Origin: Microbacterium sp. LWS13-1.2
Lineage (GTDB): Bacteria; Actinomycetota; Actinomycetes; Actinomycetales; Microbacteriaceae
Assembly: GCF_040144835.1 (NCBI RefSeq)
Contig: NZ_CP151632.1
Coordinates: forward strand, 1,178,001-1,242,000
Length of the DNA stretch: 64,000 bases
Direction: 5' to 3'
The notes beneath the pieces were generated by a model, which saw nothing but the letters and a program-made list of their open reading frames with translations, did not search any database and was not told the origin of the DNA. The first letter of the stretch is position 1; every line of letters begins with the position of its first letter. Below, piece after piece: positions 23,632 through 41,148 of this stretch. Made by a program: the position numbers and the translations under genes.

Positions 23632-24605
23632 CGTACGCCCCGACTGACCGCCCCCGCCGCCTGCGCTCCACCCCGGCGATGCGGCGGCTCGTCGCCGAGA
23701 CGCGGCTGCACCCGGCCGAGCTGATCCTCCCGATGTTCGTGCGCGAAGGCGCTGCCGAGCCTGTGCCGATCTCCTCGATGCCGGGGGTCGTGCAGCACAC
23801 GACCGAGAGCCTGAAGAAGGCGGTGACGGATGCCGCGACCGCCGGCATCGGCGGCATCATGCTGTTCGGCGTGCCCGAGCACAAGGACGCCACGGGCTCC
23901 GGTGCGACCGATCCCGACGGCATCCTGAACGTCGCCACCCGCATCGCGGCCGCCGAGGCCGGCGACGCGCTCGTCGTGCAGACCGACCTCTGCCTCGACG
24001 AGTTCACGGACCACGGCCACTGCGGCGTGCTCGATGGGAACGGCTACGTCGACAACGACGCCACGCTCGAGCGCTACCGCGACATGGGCGTGGCGCAGGC
24101 CGAGGCGGGCTCGCAGCTGCTGGGCCTCTCGGGCATGATGGACGGCCAGGTCGCCGCCGTGCGCGATGCGCTCGATGACGCCGGCCATGCGAACACCCCG
24201 ATCCTGGGCTACGCCGCCAAGTACGCCTCCGCCTTCTACGGCCCCTTCCGCGAGGCGGTGCAGTCGTCGCTCGAGGGCGACCGCCGCACGTACCAGCAGG
24301 ACCCCGCGAACCGCCGCGAGGGCGCGCGCGAGCTCGACCTCGACCTCGCCGAGGGCGCCGACATCGTGATGGTCAAGCCCGCGATGAGCTACCTCGACGT
24401 GCTGTCGGATGCCGCGGCCACGAGCCCCGTCCCCGTCTGGGCGTACCAGGTGTCGGGCGAGTACGCGATGATCGAGGCCGCCGCGGCGAACGGCTGGATC
24501 GACCGGCGGCGTGCGATCGAGGAGTCGGTGATCGGCATCCGCCGCGCCGGTGCCGACGCCGTGCTCACCTACTGGGCTCTCGAACTCGCGGAGTGGATCC
24601 GATGA
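23628..24605 (+). CDS. hemB: Porphobilinogen synthase (ALA dehydratase) HemB
   Basis: 325 residues. Condenses two 5-aminolevulinate molecules to porphobilinogen. The Schiff-base lysines lie in [16 protein letters not shown] and [11 protein letters not shown]. The metal region reads [14 protein letters not shown]: the outer two of the three zinc-type cysteines are kept but the middle one is Asp. This intermediate form is, as I recall, common in actinobacteria and leaves metal use (zinc or magnesium) uncertain. GTG start overlaps hemC; its stop overlaps hemL (ATGA). Confidence 0.95.
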
Positions 24606-26179
24606 CGACCAACGCACAGGAATTCGCCCGCGCCCGCGGTGCCATGCCCGGCGGGGTGAACTCGCCGGTGCGCGCGTTCGGCTCCGTGCACGAGACCCCC
24701 CGCTTCTTCGTGTCGGCGTCGGGTCCGTATGTGACCGACGTCGAGGGCCGCGAGTACGTCGATCTCGTCGGCTCGTGGGGTCCGGCGATCCTCGGGCACG
24801 CGCATCCCGCCGTCGTGAAGGCGGTGCAGGATGCCGCGGCCCACGGCCTCGGCTTCGGCGCGAGCACACCGAGCGAGACCGAGCTGGCCGAGCTCATCGC
24901 CGGCCGCGTCACCCGCCCCTCCCCGGTCGTTAAGCGAGCGAGGAACGAGCGAGACGAAACGCGCCCCACCAACCCCCCGGTCGTTGAGCGAGCGAGGAAC
25001 GAGCGAGACGAAACGCGCCCCACCAACCCCCCGGTCGTTGAGCGAGCGAGGAACGAGCCAGACGAAACGCGCCCCTCCAACCCCCCGGTCGTTGAGCGAG
25101 CGAGGAACGAGCGAGACGAAACGCGCCGAACCGACGCGAACTCGCCGGTTCACGACGCTTCGTCTCATTTCGCTCGCTCGACCGGTATGCGCCCGATCGA
25201 GCGCGTGCGCCTGGTGTCGACCGGCACCGAGGCGACGATGACCGCGATCCGCCTCGCGCGCGGCGCGACCGGGCGCGACCTGATCGTGAAGTTCGCGGGG
25301 CACTACCACGGCCACTCCGACGGCCTCCTGGCCGAGGCCGGATCGGGCGTCGCCACGTTGGCGATGCCGGGCTCGGCGGGCGTTCCCGCCCCCATCGCCG
25401 CGCAGACGCTCGTGATCCGCTACAACGAGCTCGACGCGGTGCGCGAGGTGTTCGCCGCCCGCGGGGACGACATCGCCGCTGTGATCGTCGAGGCCGCACC
25501 CGCGAACATGGGCATCGTGCCGCCGGCGCACGGCTTCAACGCCGCCCTCGCCGACATCGCCCACGCGCACGGCGCGCTGCTGATCCTCGACGAGGTGCTG
25601 ACCGGCTTCCGCGTGGGACCCGCCGGCTGGTACGGCATCGACCCCGTGCCCTTCACCCCCGACCTCATCACGTTCGGCAAGGTCGTCGGCGGCGGGCTGC
25701 CGCTCGCCGCACTCGGCGGCTCCGCGGCGCTCATGGAGCTGCTCGCCCCGCTCGGGCCGGTGTACCAGGCCGGCACGCTGAGCGGCAATCCGCTCGCCGT
25801 CGCGGCCGGCCGCGCCACCCTCGACCACCTCGACGCGGACGCTTACGCCCGCATCGACGCCGCTGCGACGACGATCGCGGATGCCGCGGCATCCGCCCTC
25901 TCCGAAGCCGGCGTGACGCACGTGGTGCAGCGCTCGGGCAACCTGTTCTCGATCCAGTTCGCGGCGACGCCGCCCGTCGACTACGACACCGTGAAGGCGC
26001 AGGAGGCGTACCGCTACGCGCCGTTCTTCCGCGCCATGCTCGCGCAGGGCGTCTCGCTGCCGCCGTCGGTGTTCGAGGCGTGGTTCGTCTCGTCCGCCCA
26101 CGACGACGCCGCGGTGGCACGGATCATCGACGCGCTGCCGGCCGCCGCCCGGGCCGCGGCCGAGGCTCGACCCGACTGA
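24602..26179 (+). CDS. hemL: Glutamate-1-semialdehyde 2,1-aminomutase HemL with in-frame repeat insertion
   Basis: 525 residues against a usual 430-440. PLP enzyme converting glutamate-1-semialdehyde to 5-aminolevulinate. Conserved parts: [38 protein letters not shown] (PLP phosphate site), [12 protein letters not shown] and the PLP lysine in [10 protein letters not shown] (Lys360; about 267 without the insertion). Between AELIAGRV and [11 protein letters not shown], residues about 104-197 are extra. Four 18-residue units of [18 protein letters not shown] type come from 54-bp tandem repeats, followed by a segment from an inverted copy of the same element. The reading frame and all catalytic parts are intact, so I expect an active enzyme with a long charged surface loop. 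Coupled to hemB by ATGA. Confidence 0.95.
24923..25138 (+). repeat. Four 54-bp tandem units of a dispersed 41-bp element inside hemL
   Basis: Units begin at 24923, 24977, 25031 and 25085, exactly 54 bp apart, so the frame is preserved (18 codons each). The 41-bp core of unit 2 is identical to the intergenic copy at 40900-40940. Units 1 and 3 differ by single substitutions; unit 4 decays after its core. Confidence 0.95.
25153..25185 (-). repeat. Inverted, diverged copy of the same element inside hemL
   Basis: The reverse complement reads CCGGTCGAGCGAGCGAAATG then AGACGAAGCG, matching the core CCGGTCGTTGAGCGAGCG...GAGACGAAACG with an internal deletion. It encodes [12 protein letters not shown] in hemL. 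Confidence 0.75.
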
Positions 26180-26327: not shown

Positions 26328-27242
26328 ATGACCACGCTCGTCGCCGTCCATGGAGACATCACCGCCCAGACGACGGATGCCGTCGTCAATGCCGCGAACA
26401 ACGCCATGCGCGGCGGTGGCGGCGTCGACGGAGCGATCCACCGGGCCGGCGGACCCGAGATCCTGCGGGACTGCATCGCCCGCTTCCCGGACGGGCTCGG
26501 CACCGGGGACGCCGGCTGGACCACCGCCGGCGCCCTGCCGGCACGCTGGGTCGTGCACACGGTGGGTCCGAACTTCGGCGCCGGGCAGCGCGATCGCGGA
26601 CTCCTGGAGTCCTGCTACCGCCGCTCGCTCGCGGTCGCCGCCGAGGTGGGCGCGCGAAGCGTCTCCTTCCCGCTCATCAGCGCCGGCATCTACGCGTGGC
26701 CTCGACGCGCCGCCATCACCACCGCCATCGACGCGATCGCCGCCGCGCACCCCGCCGTGGACGAGGTGCGGCTCGTCGCGCACGATGAGTCCGCGCATCA
26801 CGAGATCGCGTCGGCGCTGCTCATGACGACCTCGGTGCGCATCCTGCAGGGCGTGCGTGAACTGCACCGACGGGGCTTCCACCGGCTCCGAGTGTCGCCG
26901 GGCCTCGCCCCCTCCGGCATGTACCACCGGATCGTGCTGACGGATGCCGCCGACCCGGACGCGACGATCCACTACACGTCGGGCGCCGAGACCGAGTTCG
27001 CCGGTGGCACCGTCGACGCGATGTCGACGCCGGGCGATGTCGCCGAGCTCATCCTGCGGGCTCTCCCCCGCCTCGCTGCGACGCACGACGCAACCGAGTA
27101 CGCCGCATGGTTCGCGGGCCTGCTCGCGGCGGTCGAACCGGAGCACGCGCTGCCGGTCTCGTTCGCGGACTACTTCGACGACAGCGCCGGCTGGGAGATC
27201 GGCTGGGGCAGCGGCCTGCGGTATCCAGCGCCGCCCGACTGA
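26328..27242 (+). CDS. Macrodomain protein with extra C-terminal domain
   Basis: 304 residues. The N-terminal about 165 residues are a MacroD-type ADP-ribose-binding domain: VVNAANNAMRGGGGVDGAIHRAGG, TGDAGWTTAGALPARWVVHTVGP and FPLISAGIYAWP. Such domains bind or hydrolyse O-acetyl-ADP-ribose or ADP-ribosylated proteins. The remaining about 140 residues (from RILQGVRELHRRGFHRLRVSPG onward) are not part of the macro fold and I cannot name them; the PSGMYHRIVLTD block and acidic WGSGLRYPAPPD end look like a discrete domain. The gene stands alone. Confidence 0.85.
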   Translation: MTTLVAVHGDITAQTTDAVVNAANNAMRGGGGVDGAIHRAGGPEILRDCIARFPDGLGTGDAGWTTAGALPARWVVHTVGPNFGAGQRDRGLLESCYRRSLAVAAEVGARSVSFPLISAGIYAWPRRAAITTAIDAIAAAHPAVDEVRLVAHDESAHHEIASALLMTTSVRILQGVRELHRRGFHRLRVSPGLAPSGMYHRIVLTDAADPDATIHYTSGAETEFAGGTVDAMSTPGDVAELILRALPRLAATHDATEYAAWFAGLLAAVEPEHALPVSFADYFDDSAGWEIGWGSGLRYPAPPD

Positions 27243-27249
27243 CCCTCCC

Positions 27250-27397
27250 GATCGTTCGGGGGTCATGATACGCGGCTTGCGCACGCCCGCACCCACCATT
27301 CGCGACTCCTGAACAATCCACCCGCTCGGTCGGGGGTCACGACACGCGGCTTCCGCACGACCGAATCCACCATTCGCGACCCTCGAACGCGCCGCCA
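27250..27397. repeat. Pair of 74-bp direct repeats 3' of the macrodomain gene
   Basis: Segments starting near 27250 and 27324 share the order TCGGGGGTCA, ACGCGGCTT, CGCAC and CACCATTCGCGAC with scattered substitutions at a constant 74-bp offset. They lie between convergent genes and have no credible coding capacity. Confidence 0.8.
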
Positions 27398-33983: not shown

Positions 33984-35047
33984 TGACGGAGACGCTGCTC
34001 GTCACCGGCGGTGCCGGGTTCATCGGGACGCACATCGTCGCCCAGGCGATCGCCGCGGGCTGGTGTGTGCGAGTGCTGGACAGCCTTCGCCCCGACGTGC
34101 ATCCCGTCGATGCTGCGGCACCGGCCGGCACGGAGTTCGTGCGCGCCGACATGACGGACGCCGACGCCATGACACCCGCGGTCGAGGGTGCCGACGTCGT
34201 GTGTCACCAGGCCGCGAAAGTGGGGCTCGGCGTGGATCTCGGAGATGCACCGGACTACGTCCGCTCCAACGACCTCGGCACCGCCGTGCTGCTCGCGGCG
34301 ATGGCGCGCGCCGGGGTCGGGCGACTCGTGCTCGCGTCGTCGATGGTGGTCTACGGGGAGGGCAACTACCGCGACCGGCAGGGCCCGATCGCGGCACCGC
34401 CCCGCGACCTCGCCGACCTCGCGGCGGGCAGATTCGAGCCGATCTCGCCGCGCACCGGCGAGGCTCTCGTTCCCGAGCTCATCGACGAGTCCGCACCGCT
34501 CGATCCCCGCAACGTGTACGCGGCGTCGAAGGTCGCGCAGGAGAACCTGGTGCGAGCGTGGGCGCGCGAGACCGGCGGCCACGGCGCGCTGCTGCGCTAC
34601 CACAACGTGTACGGACCCGGGATGCCGCAGGCCACCCCGTATGCGGGCGTGGCCTCGCTCTTCCGCTCGGCGCTCGAGGCGGGCCTGGCGCCCACCGTGC
34701 TCGAAGACGGCGCACAGCGGCGGGACTTCGTGCACGTGTCCGACGTCGCCGCGGCGAACCTCGCGGCGATCGACTGGACCGCCTCCGCCGGCGCGGGCAC
34801 CGCCCGCCCGTTCAACGTCGCGAGCGGCGAAGTGCACACGGTCGGCGAAATGGCCGACGCGCTGGCCGACGCCTTCGGCGGGCCCGCCCCCGTGATCACT
34901 GGCGGCTACCGACTCGGCGACGTACGGCACATCACCGCTTCCTCGCAGCGTCTGCGCGACGAGCTCGGGTGGCGCGCGCGGGTCGGCTTCGCCGACGGCA
35001 TGCGCGAGTTCGCCCGCGCACCGCTGCGCGATCCGGCGGCATCGTGA
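33983..35047 (+). CDS. NAD-dependent sugar epimerase/dehydratase (GalE-like SDR)
   Basis: 354 residues, extended SDR. NAD motif LLVTGGAGFIGTHIV, then CHQAAKVGLGVDL, active-site SSMVVYGEGNY and YAASKVAQENLVRAWA (the YxxxK pair), and the substrate-side GAQRRDFVHVSDVAAANL. Epimerises or modifies a nucleotide-sugar or sugar phosphate. ATG at 33983 overlaps the phosphorylase stop. The last codons and stop lie in the first unit of a 17-bp tandem repeat that links it to the next gene. Confidence 0.9.
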   Translation: MTETLLVTGGAGFIGTHIVAQAIAAGWCVRVLDSLRPDVHPVDAAAPAGTEFVRADMTDADAMTPAVEGADVVCHQAAKVGLGVDLGDAPDYVRSNDLGTAVLLAAMARAGVGRLVLASSMVVYGEGNYRDRQGPIAAPPRDLADLAAGRFEPISPRTGEALVPELIDESAPLDPRNVYAASKVAQENLVRAWARETGGHGALLRYHNVYGPGMPQATPYAGVASLFRSALEAGLAPTVLEDGAQRRDFVHVSDVAAANLAAIDWTASAGAGTARPFNVASGEVHTVGEMADALADAFGGPAPVITGGYRLGDVRHITASSQRLRDELGWRARVGFADGMREFARAPLRDPAAS

Positions 35048-35137
35048 AAGAGGCGGCATCGTGAAAGAGGCGGTATCGTGCGCGAGTCGGCATCGTGCGC
35101 GAGGCTGCATCGTGAGCGAGATCGCATCGTGAGCGAG
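35036..35137 (+). repeat. Six 17-bp tandem units carrying GTG starts and TGA stops
   Basis: Units start at 35036, 35053, 35070, 35087, 35104 and 35121, each with the core ATCGTG. The first two are identical; later ones differ at 2-5 positions. Because 17 is not divisible by 3, successive GTG codons fall in all three frames. Several units give GTGA, which is both a start and, one base on, a stop. The first TGA ends the epimerase. Confidence 0.95.
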
Positions 35138-36742: not shown

Positions 36743-37768
36743 CTATTCGCCGGCTGCGCGACGGGTGAGAAGCTGCCGCACGTGGGCCTCGATCTCGGCG
36801 TCGTCGACGTACCCCATGCGGGCGTATTCGGAGTCGGCCGAGGCCGTGCGGGCCGTGCGCGCCGTGTCGATCGACGGCGGCTTCTGGGCTTCTGCGCGGG
36901 CCAGCATGGCCTGCTCGAGCGCGGCCTGGCGCAGGGCCGCGCGAGCGGCTTCGGCATCCAGCACGGCTGCGGCACGCGATCCCGCCGACGCCGTGAGCGG
37001 CCGCGGCAGGTCGCGCGGCGCCCAGGCGCGCTGCTCGCGTTCGAGCGCAACATCCTGCAGTACGGCGGCACGGCGCGGCGCGGTATCCGTCTCCCGCGCC
37101 ACGGCACGCGCCGCAACGCGGGACAGGCGATGAAGCGTGATGCTCGACGCCATCACGAGACCGACGCCCAGCCACAGCAGCGTCTGCGCCCCCGCGGTGA
37201 GCGTCTCGAACACGCCCCAGCCGGCGACGGCGAGGCCGCCGAGCCCGACGAGGGTGGCGACAAGACGGAAGGCGCGACGCACGCGCGCGCGGCGCGCAGC
37301 GGGAATCGCCCGCGCGGCGGCCAGTTCGGCGCGTGCGGCCGCCTCGGCCGACGCGCGTTCGGCGCGAGCGCGCTCGAGGTCGACGCGAGCAGCTGCCTCG
37401 GCGGCGACGCGCTCGGTGCGAGCCCGCTCGCGCTCGAGACGTGCAGTGGCCTCGGCCACCTCGCGCTCGGTGCGTGCACGCTCGAGGTCGACCCGCGCCT
37501 CTTCGAGGGCGGCATGCTCGCGCTCGGCGAGCGCGCGCTTCGCGAGCCGCTGCTGTGCGGCCGCGGTGCGGGCGTTCAACTCGAGGCGCACTTCCTCCGG
37601 CGTCTCGCTCGTCTCGGCGAGAACGCGCAGCGCCTGGTTCAGGCGGACGGCGTTGCGCTCTGCCGCGTCGAACTGGCGGCGGCTGTGCCACGTCGGCAGC
37701 AGATAGACGAGCCACAAGCCCACGGCGACGAGAACGATGACTCCCCCGCCCCACACCTGCCCACCCAT
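36743..37768 (-). CDS. Membrane-anchored coiled-coil protein of unknown function
   Basis: 341 residues. An N-terminal membrane segment (about residues 8-25, VIVLVAVGLWLVYLLPTW) is followed by a long Ala/Glu/Arg coiled coil (about 50-155) with many ERA, AAA and LERAR heptad-like repeats, then two further membrane segments (about 163-205) and a charged C-terminus. I do not know its function; similar proteins are found in Microbacteriaceae next to galU/GNAT genes. ATG at 37768 is chosen because TACCGT lies 7 nt upstream (leaderless pattern) while the alternative GTG 9 nt upstream falls inside that -10 box. Follows the GNAT gene on the same strand. Confidence 0.78.
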   Translation of the reverse strand: MGGQVWGGGVIVLVAVGLWLVYLLPTWHSRRQFDAAERNAVRLNQALRVLAETSETPEEVRLELNARTAAAQQRLAKRALAEREHAALEEARVDLERARTEREVAEATARLERERARTERVAAEAAARVDLERARAERASAEAAARAELAAARAIPAARRARVRRAFRLVATLVGLGGLAVAGWGVFETLTAGAQTLLWLGVGLVMASSITLHRLSRVAARAVARETDTAPRRAAVLQDVALEREQRAWAPRDLPRPLTASAGSRAAAVLDAEAARAALRQAALEQAMLARAEAQKPPSIDTARTARTASADSEYARMGYVDDAEIEAHVRQLLTRRAAGE

Positions 37769-40875: not shown

Positions 40876-40899
40876 GCGTCTCCGCGGCGCGAAACGCAC

Positions 40900-40940
40900 C
40901 CGGTCGTTGAGCGAGCGAGGAACGAGCGAGACGAAACGCG
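40900..40940 (+). repeat. Intergenic copy of the 41-bp dispersed element
   Basis: Identical over 41 bp to the core of hemL unit 2 (24977-25017). It lies between the convergent mscL and small-protein genes. A further possible decayed relative on the minus strand is near 14350-14390. Confidence 0.9.
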
Positions 40941-40947
40941 GCCGGTT

Positions 40948-41148
40948 CTAATAATGCGGGGGGACGTCGCGCCGCAGGCGCTCGTCGTTCGGCCCCGCTG
41001 ACCCGGGGGTCGCGTCGGGCGCCGCGGTGGCGGCATCCGTCTCGTCGTCGCCCGGGACGGGCTCGGCGCTCGTTCCAGGCGCGGGCGTCAGCTTCGCCCG
41101 CCGGGAGCCCTTGACCCGCTCGATGCGCTGGCGGTCACTCGACGACAT
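40948..41148 (-). CDS. Small acidic protein coupled to the helicase/nuclease gene
   Basis: 66 residues: a basic N-terminus (MSSSDRQRIERVKGSRRAKL), an Ala/Asp/Pro-rich middle and a C-terminal NDERLRRDVPPHY. The ATG at 41148 lies 14 bp inside the 3' end of the large upstream gene, so it is translationally coupled to it. I recall similar short proteins with the same C-terminal motif in Microbacteriaceae but no function. Its position suggests a partner of the nuclease; this is inference. Confidence 0.65.
   Translation of the reverse strand: MSSSDRQRIERVKGSRRAKLTPAPGTSAEPVPGDDETDAATAAPDATPGSAGPNDERLRRDVPPHY

What the first reader, a model, noticed from the sequence alone, without database searches (positions are those of the whole stretch)
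24923..25185. Dispersed 41-bp element expanded as in-frame tandem repeats inside hemL
hemL is about 90 codons longer than normal. The excess is four 54-bp units (18 codons each) of a dispersed element plus an inverted diverged copy, exactly at the junction AELIAGRV / [11 protein letters not shown] before the PLP phosphate site. The 41-bp core is identical to an intergenic copy at 40900-40940. An intergenic repeat has invaded an essential gene, amplified in multiples of 3 and been tolerated as a charged loop. Near-identity of the units implies recent amplification, so copy number may vary between strains.
Basis: partly seen in the sequence, partly recalled or inferred. Interest (0 to 1): 0.85.

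Follow-up and report, generated by a model that had tools for sequence, protein, structure and literature searches.

The report
Roving DNA repeat lengthens enzyme loop
In bacteria of the genus Microbacterium a short dispersed DNA repeat has landed again and again, in reading frame, at the same loop of the haem-synthesis enzyme HemL, and here it sits there in four tandem copies, so a known but rare way of lengthening proteins can be watched recurring at one spot.

Summary
Confirmed. hemL (24602-26176+, 525 aa) carries four 54-bp in-frame units starting at 24923, 24977, 25031 and 25085, plus a diverged inverted arm. Units 2 and 4 are identical to the 41-bp intergenic copy at 40900-40940; units 1 and 3 differ by one base. 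The unit is one arm of a modular palindrome with 110 arm copies in this genome; the arm was found in none of 293 sampled family genomes outside the genus. In the stretches examined 62 of 75 copy sites are intergenic and 13 lie inside 12 predicted genes. The HemL junction is a recurrent target: element-bearing loops need 11 changes on a 90-row hemL tree built without the loop, involve at least three arm families, and the sister M. psychrotolerans keeps a 9-residue loop. A close strain (ZW CA_36) has three forward units instead of four. AlphaFold leaves the insert disordered between an intact helix and strand; the flanking hemL sequence stays under constraint. It works like Rickettsia palindromic elements, but sequence kinship was not tested, and no transposase or target-site duplication was found. 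New variant of a known kind; the surprise is the recurrence at one codon junction.

The parts
24602..26179 (+). hemL, glutamate-1-semialdehyde 2,1-aminomutase, 525 aa plus stop, with lengthened loop
   Evidence: ORF (listed there from a GTG 9 bases upstream); NCBIfam; Pfam Aminotran_3
24911..25198 (+). lengthened loop, residues 104-199 (96 aa; 8-9 aa in most relatives)
   Evidence: flank mapping; DNA of filled and empty sites; AF2 pLDDT <50 for residues 111-187
24923..24976 (+). unit 1 (one change from the 41-bp core, E to K)
24977..25030 (+). unit 2 (core identical to 40900-40940)
25031..25084 (+). unit 3 (one change in core, R to P; one in spacer, T to S)
25085..25125 (+). unit 4, left arm of the remaining palindrome (core identical to 40900-40940)
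25148..25185 (-). diverged inverted right arm of the palindrome (boundaries by eye)
   Evidence: sequence; pairs with unit 4 in fold
40900..40940 (+). solitary intergenic arm, 41 bp, between convergent predicted genes
   Evidence: lone arm does not fold better than shuffles

Best explanation
The repeat is an arm of a dispersed, modular palindromic element of Microbacterium (arm CCGGTCGTTGAG...CGAGACGAAACGC, spacer, inverted arm). It spreads mainly between genes, and copies that land in a gene survive only if they keep the frame and fall in a loop, linker or terminus. In hemL an element entered the loop between the helix ending ELIAGRV and the strand RVRLVSTG; its left arm then multiplied to four 54-bp units by slippage or unequal recombination between arms. 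HemL makes the insert as a charged, disordered loop and stays functional. Shown: dispersal, open frame, repeated hits at the junction, 3-versus-4 unit variation, constraint on the flanking hemL sequence. Inferred: spread by some transposition-like or copy process (agent unknown), slippage as the amplifier, full enzyme function.
For: 110 copies with up to 3 mismatches, reversed control 0; 148 exact arms of various inner types. 41 of 111 copies in the fetched stretches have an inverted arm within 95 nt; one full element folds with z = -8.9. 13 of 75 sites intragenic where 0.875 of the fetched sequence is predicted coding. Element-bearing loops at the hemL junction in 12 of 90 distinct rows, 11 changes; many ingroup rows without insert keep the same kind of 8-residue loop (TRDGARPV and the like) as outgroup rows. 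Outside the loop, hemL of this strain and of M. psychrotolerans differ in 61 of 359 codons, 56 silently and 5 with an amino-acid change, so the gene is constrained. The four insert units (the last over 42 bases) differ by three amino-acid changes and no silent one, as expected of a tolerated filler. AF2: insert disordered, neighbours kept.
Against: No agent of movement found: Y1 transposase absent, no clear target-site duplication in 41 full elements, no match of a 51-base query in phage or plasmid collections at megablast sensitivity. The AF2 model rests on 40 sequences (mean pLDDT 70). No expression or activity data. The loop also grows without a recognisable element, in Galbitalea, Frigoribacterium and a MAG and perhaps G097. 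Copy number does not decide it: G100 (122 copies) and G183 (51) have 8-residue loops.
Confidence: 0.85

Rival explanations
1. The junction is a hotspot because the empty site resembles the element's head (gene CCGGTCGAGCGCGTGCG, element CCGGTCGTTGAGCGAGCG), so arms enter by microhomology, for example template switching or gene-conversion-like replacement.
For: DNA of empty and filled sites. Over 17 empty hemL genes the median fraction of windows scoring above the site is 0.045 (arm A), 0.031 (B), 0.071 (C). The three arm families share the head.
Against: The site score is the best of several windows, the species are not independent, and the opposite strand also gives 0.118, 0.131 and 0.083. 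The same test was not done for other genes. Permissiveness alone could explain the hotspot.
Confidence: 0.2
2. One old insertion in the ancestor, followed by many losses.
For: 11 of the 12 element-bearing rows lie in one 27-row Microbacterium clade.
Against: Loss would have to restore nearly the same 8-residue loop many times; the arms belong to different families in near relatives; starred branches force at least 10 changes of the 'loop of 14 or more' label.
Confidence: 0.06
3. The lengthened loop is selected for a function in HemL (for example partner binding) rather than tolerated.
For: 12 of 13 intragenic sites read the arm in sense, giving charged peptides, against 16 sense and 14 antisense in intergenic sites between co-directional genes (Fisher p = 0.017).
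Against: Insert sequence and length differ between sisters and many close relatives do without; the changes between units alter the amino acid each time.
Confidence: 0.1
4. Assembly artefact.
For: Near-identical tandem units can be miscounted.
Against: The genome is one contig; NCBI protein P0001 shows a related array with variant units, and named records of other species carry their own inserts.
Confidence: 0.03

Closest known systems
Rickettsia palindromic elements (RPE)
   Same: Dispersed palindromic repeats of about 150 bp, many inserted in frame in unrelated metabolic genes (review PMC10969869, passages seen)
   Different: Actinobacterium; shorter, modular arms; most sites examined are intergenic; repeated hits at the same codon junction and tandem amplification inside it; sequences were not compared with RPE
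Protein-coding palindromic repeats of Wolbachia (WPE) and Methanocaldococcus jannaschii
   Same: In-frame palindromic insertions in housekeeping genes, typically in non-structured segments (as told in PMC2996958, passages seen)
   Different: Other hosts; their sequences were not compared here
REP elements, GTAG and CGTC super-families
   Same: High copy, often paired inverted units, mainly between convergent and co-directional genes, some inside genes (PMC3733652, passages seen)
   Different: A single arm here does not fold on its own better than shuffles (z = 0.55); no Y1/RAYT gene in the genome
MITEs
   Same: Short, terminal inverted repeats, dispersed
   Different: No clear target-site duplication and no matching transposase found

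Membership tests
Rickettsia palindromic elements | palindromic repeat inserted in frame in protein-coding genes | tested here: met
   13 sites inside 12 predicted genes, frame open (at gene ends the predicted ORF may simply read on into the repeat); a full element folds
Rickettsia palindromic elements | belongs to a described RPE sequence family in Rickettsia | not tested
   RPE sequences were not fetched or aligned; within its own bacterial family the A arm was found in 1 of 85 genera
REP (GTAG type) | associated RAYT (Y1) transposase | tested here: not met
   PF01797: 0 matches in the own genome, control genomes ring in 5 of 14; relatives not searched
REP | single unit forms its own short stem-loop | tested here: not met
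   lone arm window 40890-40960 z = 0.55; one copy tested
MITE | terminal inverted repeats | tested here: met
   41 of 111 copies with inverted arm within 95 nt
MITE | target-site duplication | tested here: not met
   flanking direct repeats observed against shuffled mean: k=2 3 v 1.4, k=3 1 v 0.3, k=4-8 0, k=9 1 v 0.1, the last inside an array of direct repeats
MITE | mobilised by a known transposase sharing its ends | tested here: inconclusive
   only Y1 (and DUF222) were searched genome-wide; other transposases not surveyed
GSAM / HemL | glutamate-1-semialdehyde aminomutase sequence, family columns kept | tested here: met
   solved homologues found with the insert-free M. psychrotolerans HemL, best 3k28 E 5e-122; activity not testable here

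The most novel reading that the evidence does not exclude
A live, genus-wide supply of linker peptides: modular palindromic arms enter particular codon junctions again and again, steered by likeness between the gene's own sequence and the arm's head, then expand and shrink in 18-codon steps, so that loops of core enzymes (HemL, a CydC-like exporter, an HrpA-like helicase, DNA polymerase III gamma/tau) turn over between sister species.
Probability: 0.2. Interest if true: 0.8.

Novelty: new variant of a known kind. Interest (0 to 1): 0.6.

Why it matters
In-frame invasion of genes by palindromic repeats is known from Rickettsia, and the review seen there calls its share in protein evolution unexplored. 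Here sister species with and without the insert, several arm families at one codon junction, and a 3-versus-4 unit difference between close strains make the process observable in bacteria that are held as named strains, and make 'can selfish repeats build protein loops?' testable with a single well-known enzyme.

Tried and rejected
REP/RAYT system: no Y1 transposase in the genome. Link to the 12 DUF222 matches: one lies close to copies (2442457, copies at 2442092-2442191); positions were compared by eye, no statistic. Phage or plasmid carriage: no megablast match of a 51-base query. MITE with target duplication: not found. Microhomology steering: suggestive only. Paper search for the sequence GAGCCTGTCGAA gave 4 papers unrelated by title; searches pairing Microbacterium with 'repetitive extragenic palindromic' (14 papers) and with 'miniature inverted-repeat transposable' (1 paper), and Microbacteriaceae with palindromic or intergenic repeats (10 of 19 listed), showed no paper that by title or start of abstract describes this element; only listings were seen, and most subscription papers are not held. 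One fold (L046, z = -0.4) used a window that cut the element off and says nothing.

Rows dropped: of 110 hemL loci, L024 and L113 (contig edges) were skipped and L107 gave no left flank, leaving 107, of which 17 were identical to others, so 90 in the tree. The first loop parse failed on many loci; the counts given are. The 20 extra hemL loci were hand-picked (some for odd match starts or many copies), not random. Family labels A/B/C and the sense/antisense counts in co-directional gaps were assigned by eye. One search lists only the first places of its 110; the 57 stretches cover the places listed, and with the window they hold 110 copies with up to 2 mismatches to the 32-mer against 113 in the genome.

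Full report
Observation. The window lies in a single-contig genome of 4,326,447 bases. By the named loci that encode its nearest HemL relatives it is a Microbacterium. hemL at 24602-26176 holds a 54-bp tandem array: units start at 24923, 24977, 25031 and 25085; units 2 and 4 are identical over 41 bp to the intergenic copy at 40900-40940, and units 1 and 3 differ by one base. The three codon differences between the units (the last unit compared over 42 bases) all change the amino acid. A diverged inverted arm follows at about 25148-25185; with unit 4 it folds better than shuffled DNA (z = -4.0, 1 of 200 shuffles as good).

The element. The 39-mer occurs 110 times with up to 3 mismatches and its reversed control 0 times. 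A looser arm pattern with a free middle gives 148 exact matches with several inner cores. In 57 stretches around listed copies plus the window, 111 copies (up to 4 mismatches to the 32-mer core) fall in 75 sites; all 23 multi-copy sites hold copies of one orientation. Of the 111 copies, 41 are followed by an inverted arm within 95 nt, giving elements of 75-134 bp. One such element folds with z = -8.9; a lone arm does not fold better than shuffles (z = 0.55). The A arm was found in 25 of 198 genus genomes and, in a family sample, in 2 of 299 genomes, both among the 6 of this genus and none among the 293 of 84 other genera. Other arm types were not searched outside the genus. No clear target-site duplication was seen and no Y1 transposase is present.

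Where it sits. 62 of 75 sites are intergenic (30 between co-directional, 24 between convergent, 8 between divergent genes) and 13 are inside predicted genes, while 0.875 of the fetched sequence is predicted coding. Convergent gaps are over-represented (24 of 62 sites; Fisher p = 1.5e-5), but this is rough: the background comes from the same stretches and two sites can share a gap. Gene prediction was my own simple codon model. The 12 genes hit, by Pfam, are hemL, an HrpA-like helicase (DUF3418; two sites), an ABC exporter of CydC type (between membrane and ATPase parts), DUF993, an epimerase tail, a CofG/CofH-like fusion linker, a DUF1980 protein, a doubled ABC ATPase linker, a peptidase C26 tail, a PLP-dependent enzyme tail, a sugar transferase N-terminus and a linker between FAA-hydrolase and RraA domains. 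By these positions I count 5 genes hit in linkers, 4 at an end and 3 inside a domain. The names CydC, HrpA and CofG/CofH are my reading of the domains. In two further genes (L074, L087) the element's head supplies the predicted stop codon. In 12 of 13 intragenic sites the arm is read in sense (binomial p = 0.003), against 16 sense and 14 antisense in co-directional gaps (the gap counts were read off by eye).

Recurrence at one junction. HemL loops were read from 107 of 110 loci; of 90 distinct rows 64 have 8 or 9 residues. Element-bearing loops occur in 12 of 90: arm A in this strain, G101 (M. hibisci), G073 (M. salsuginis), G160 and G028 (M. jejuense); a shorter arm B in G177 (M. flavescens) and G086 (sp. 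2FI); a TTCGACAGGCTCAG-type arm C in G049, G175, M. yannicii and Leaf288; and a fourth kind in M. luticocti (names of G genomes by identical hemL flanks). On a tree from which the loop was left out, these 12 rows need 11 changes, 10 of them within one 27-row clade; for the wider label 'loop of at least 14 residues' (16 rows) the tree needs 14 changes and starred branches force at least 10. Sister pairs with and without an element include this strain and M. psychrotolerans, Leaf288 and G061, G073 and HD4P20, G049 and G100. That wider label is not clustered on the tree more than shuffled labels (149 of 500 shuffles as low), as scattered gains would give. Against a simple rule: four of the 16 long loops (Galbitalea, two Frigoribacterium, one MAG) show no recognisable element, and G100 with 122 copies keeps a short loop. 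In a hand-picked set of 20 more genus genomes 17 have 8-residue loops, G183 with 51 copies among them, and 3 are longer: G136 reads like a diverged arm C, one is M. luticocti again, and G097 has 37 residues of unclear origin.

Copy-number change. A search with the insert region found 6 proteins among 4,491 candidates. HemL of Microbacterium sp. ZW CA_36 (508 aa, 98% identical) has three forward units and a like inverted arm; its last two units share this strain's variants (NEPDETRPS and the final unit), so the array predates the split and the number changed later. Only its protein was seen. The others are HemL of M. salsuginis (listed as sp. CFH 90308) and M. hibisci, DNA polymerase III gamma/tau of M. 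candidum with three tandem units, a sugar transferase and a permease subunit.

Other recurrent loops. Orthologues of the HrpA-like and CydC-like proteins were found in 20 of 20 relatives searched, two of which (G100, G201) are one genome. Their target loops vary in length; element peptides appear in the CydC-like linker of this strain, G049, G100, Leaf288, M. yannicii and G101, and three tandem copies of another arm in G160, while several others have linkers without it; the second HrpA-like site is filled the same way in G100 alone, and the first by arm A only in this strain.

Is HemL still an enzyme? Outside the loop, this strain and M. psychrotolerans differ at 62 of 1077 bases; 56 codons differ silently and 5 with an amino-acid change. 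Four HemLs, with inserts of different length, align without gaps outside the loop. The AF2 model (40 sequences, mean pLDDT 70.1, pTM 0.72) leaves residues 111-187 below 50 as coil between helix 90-102 and strand 201-205. In the two solved GSAM sequences whose alignments were shown the loop is shorter still. Activity is inferred, not shown.

Mechanism. Shown: a dispersed element, open frame, repeated independent-looking arrivals, differing unit number. Inferred: arms spread by an unidentified copy process, survive in genes only where frame and fold allow, and multiply by slippage or unequal exchange. Likeness of the empty site to the arm's head may steer insertion; the test favours it weakly. 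The pace seems high: with the same pattern this genome has 113 copies and the sister M. psychrotolerans (a draft in contigs) 1.

Comparison. Papers describe Rickettsia palindromic elements inserted in frame in metabolic genes (PMC10969869, passages), similar repeats in Wolbachia and M. jannaschii (PMC2996958, passages), and REPs inside genes (PMC3733652, passages). The present element works like an RPE; membership in any of these families is not shown, and two features of REPs and one of MITEs were tested and not met. In the searches I saw no report of it, from listings only.

Noticed in passing
L070:2602-3768 (+): A 388-aa transposase-like ORF (IS30-like by eye, no family search run) sits inside an array of the element, with a repeat of about 57 bp on both sides; it may have inserted into the array.
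   Followed up: partly
L074:2504-2535 and L087:2505-2536: The element's head (GGTCGTTGA) provides the predicted stop codon of the neighbouring gene in both.
   Followed up: partly
own genome, contig C1: No listed A-type copy in the first 669 kb, though four arms of other types are there; the 71 listed A sites lean towards the middle of the contig (KS p = 0.012). The origin was not located.
   Followed up: partly
L092 genome (M. psychrotolerans) against G000: 1 against 113 copies of the 32-mer in near relatives: rapid gain or loss of the whole family.
   Followed up: no
P0002: DNA polymerase III gamma/tau of M. candidum carries three tandem in-frame units.
   Followed up: no
window 27247-27388: A 74-bp unit, 1.9 copies, just beyond the end of the predicted gene 26328-27242; a different repeat.
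   Followed up: no
window 35035-35137 and 37326-37492: A 17-bp unit repeated about 6 times and a 54-bp unit repeated about 3 times (76% matches); not examined.
   Followed up: no
L218 (G097 hemL): A 37-residue loop at the same HemL junction; its DNA holds CCTCGCTCAGG and CCTGAGCGAG, perhaps a further inverted-repeat family.
   Followed up: partly
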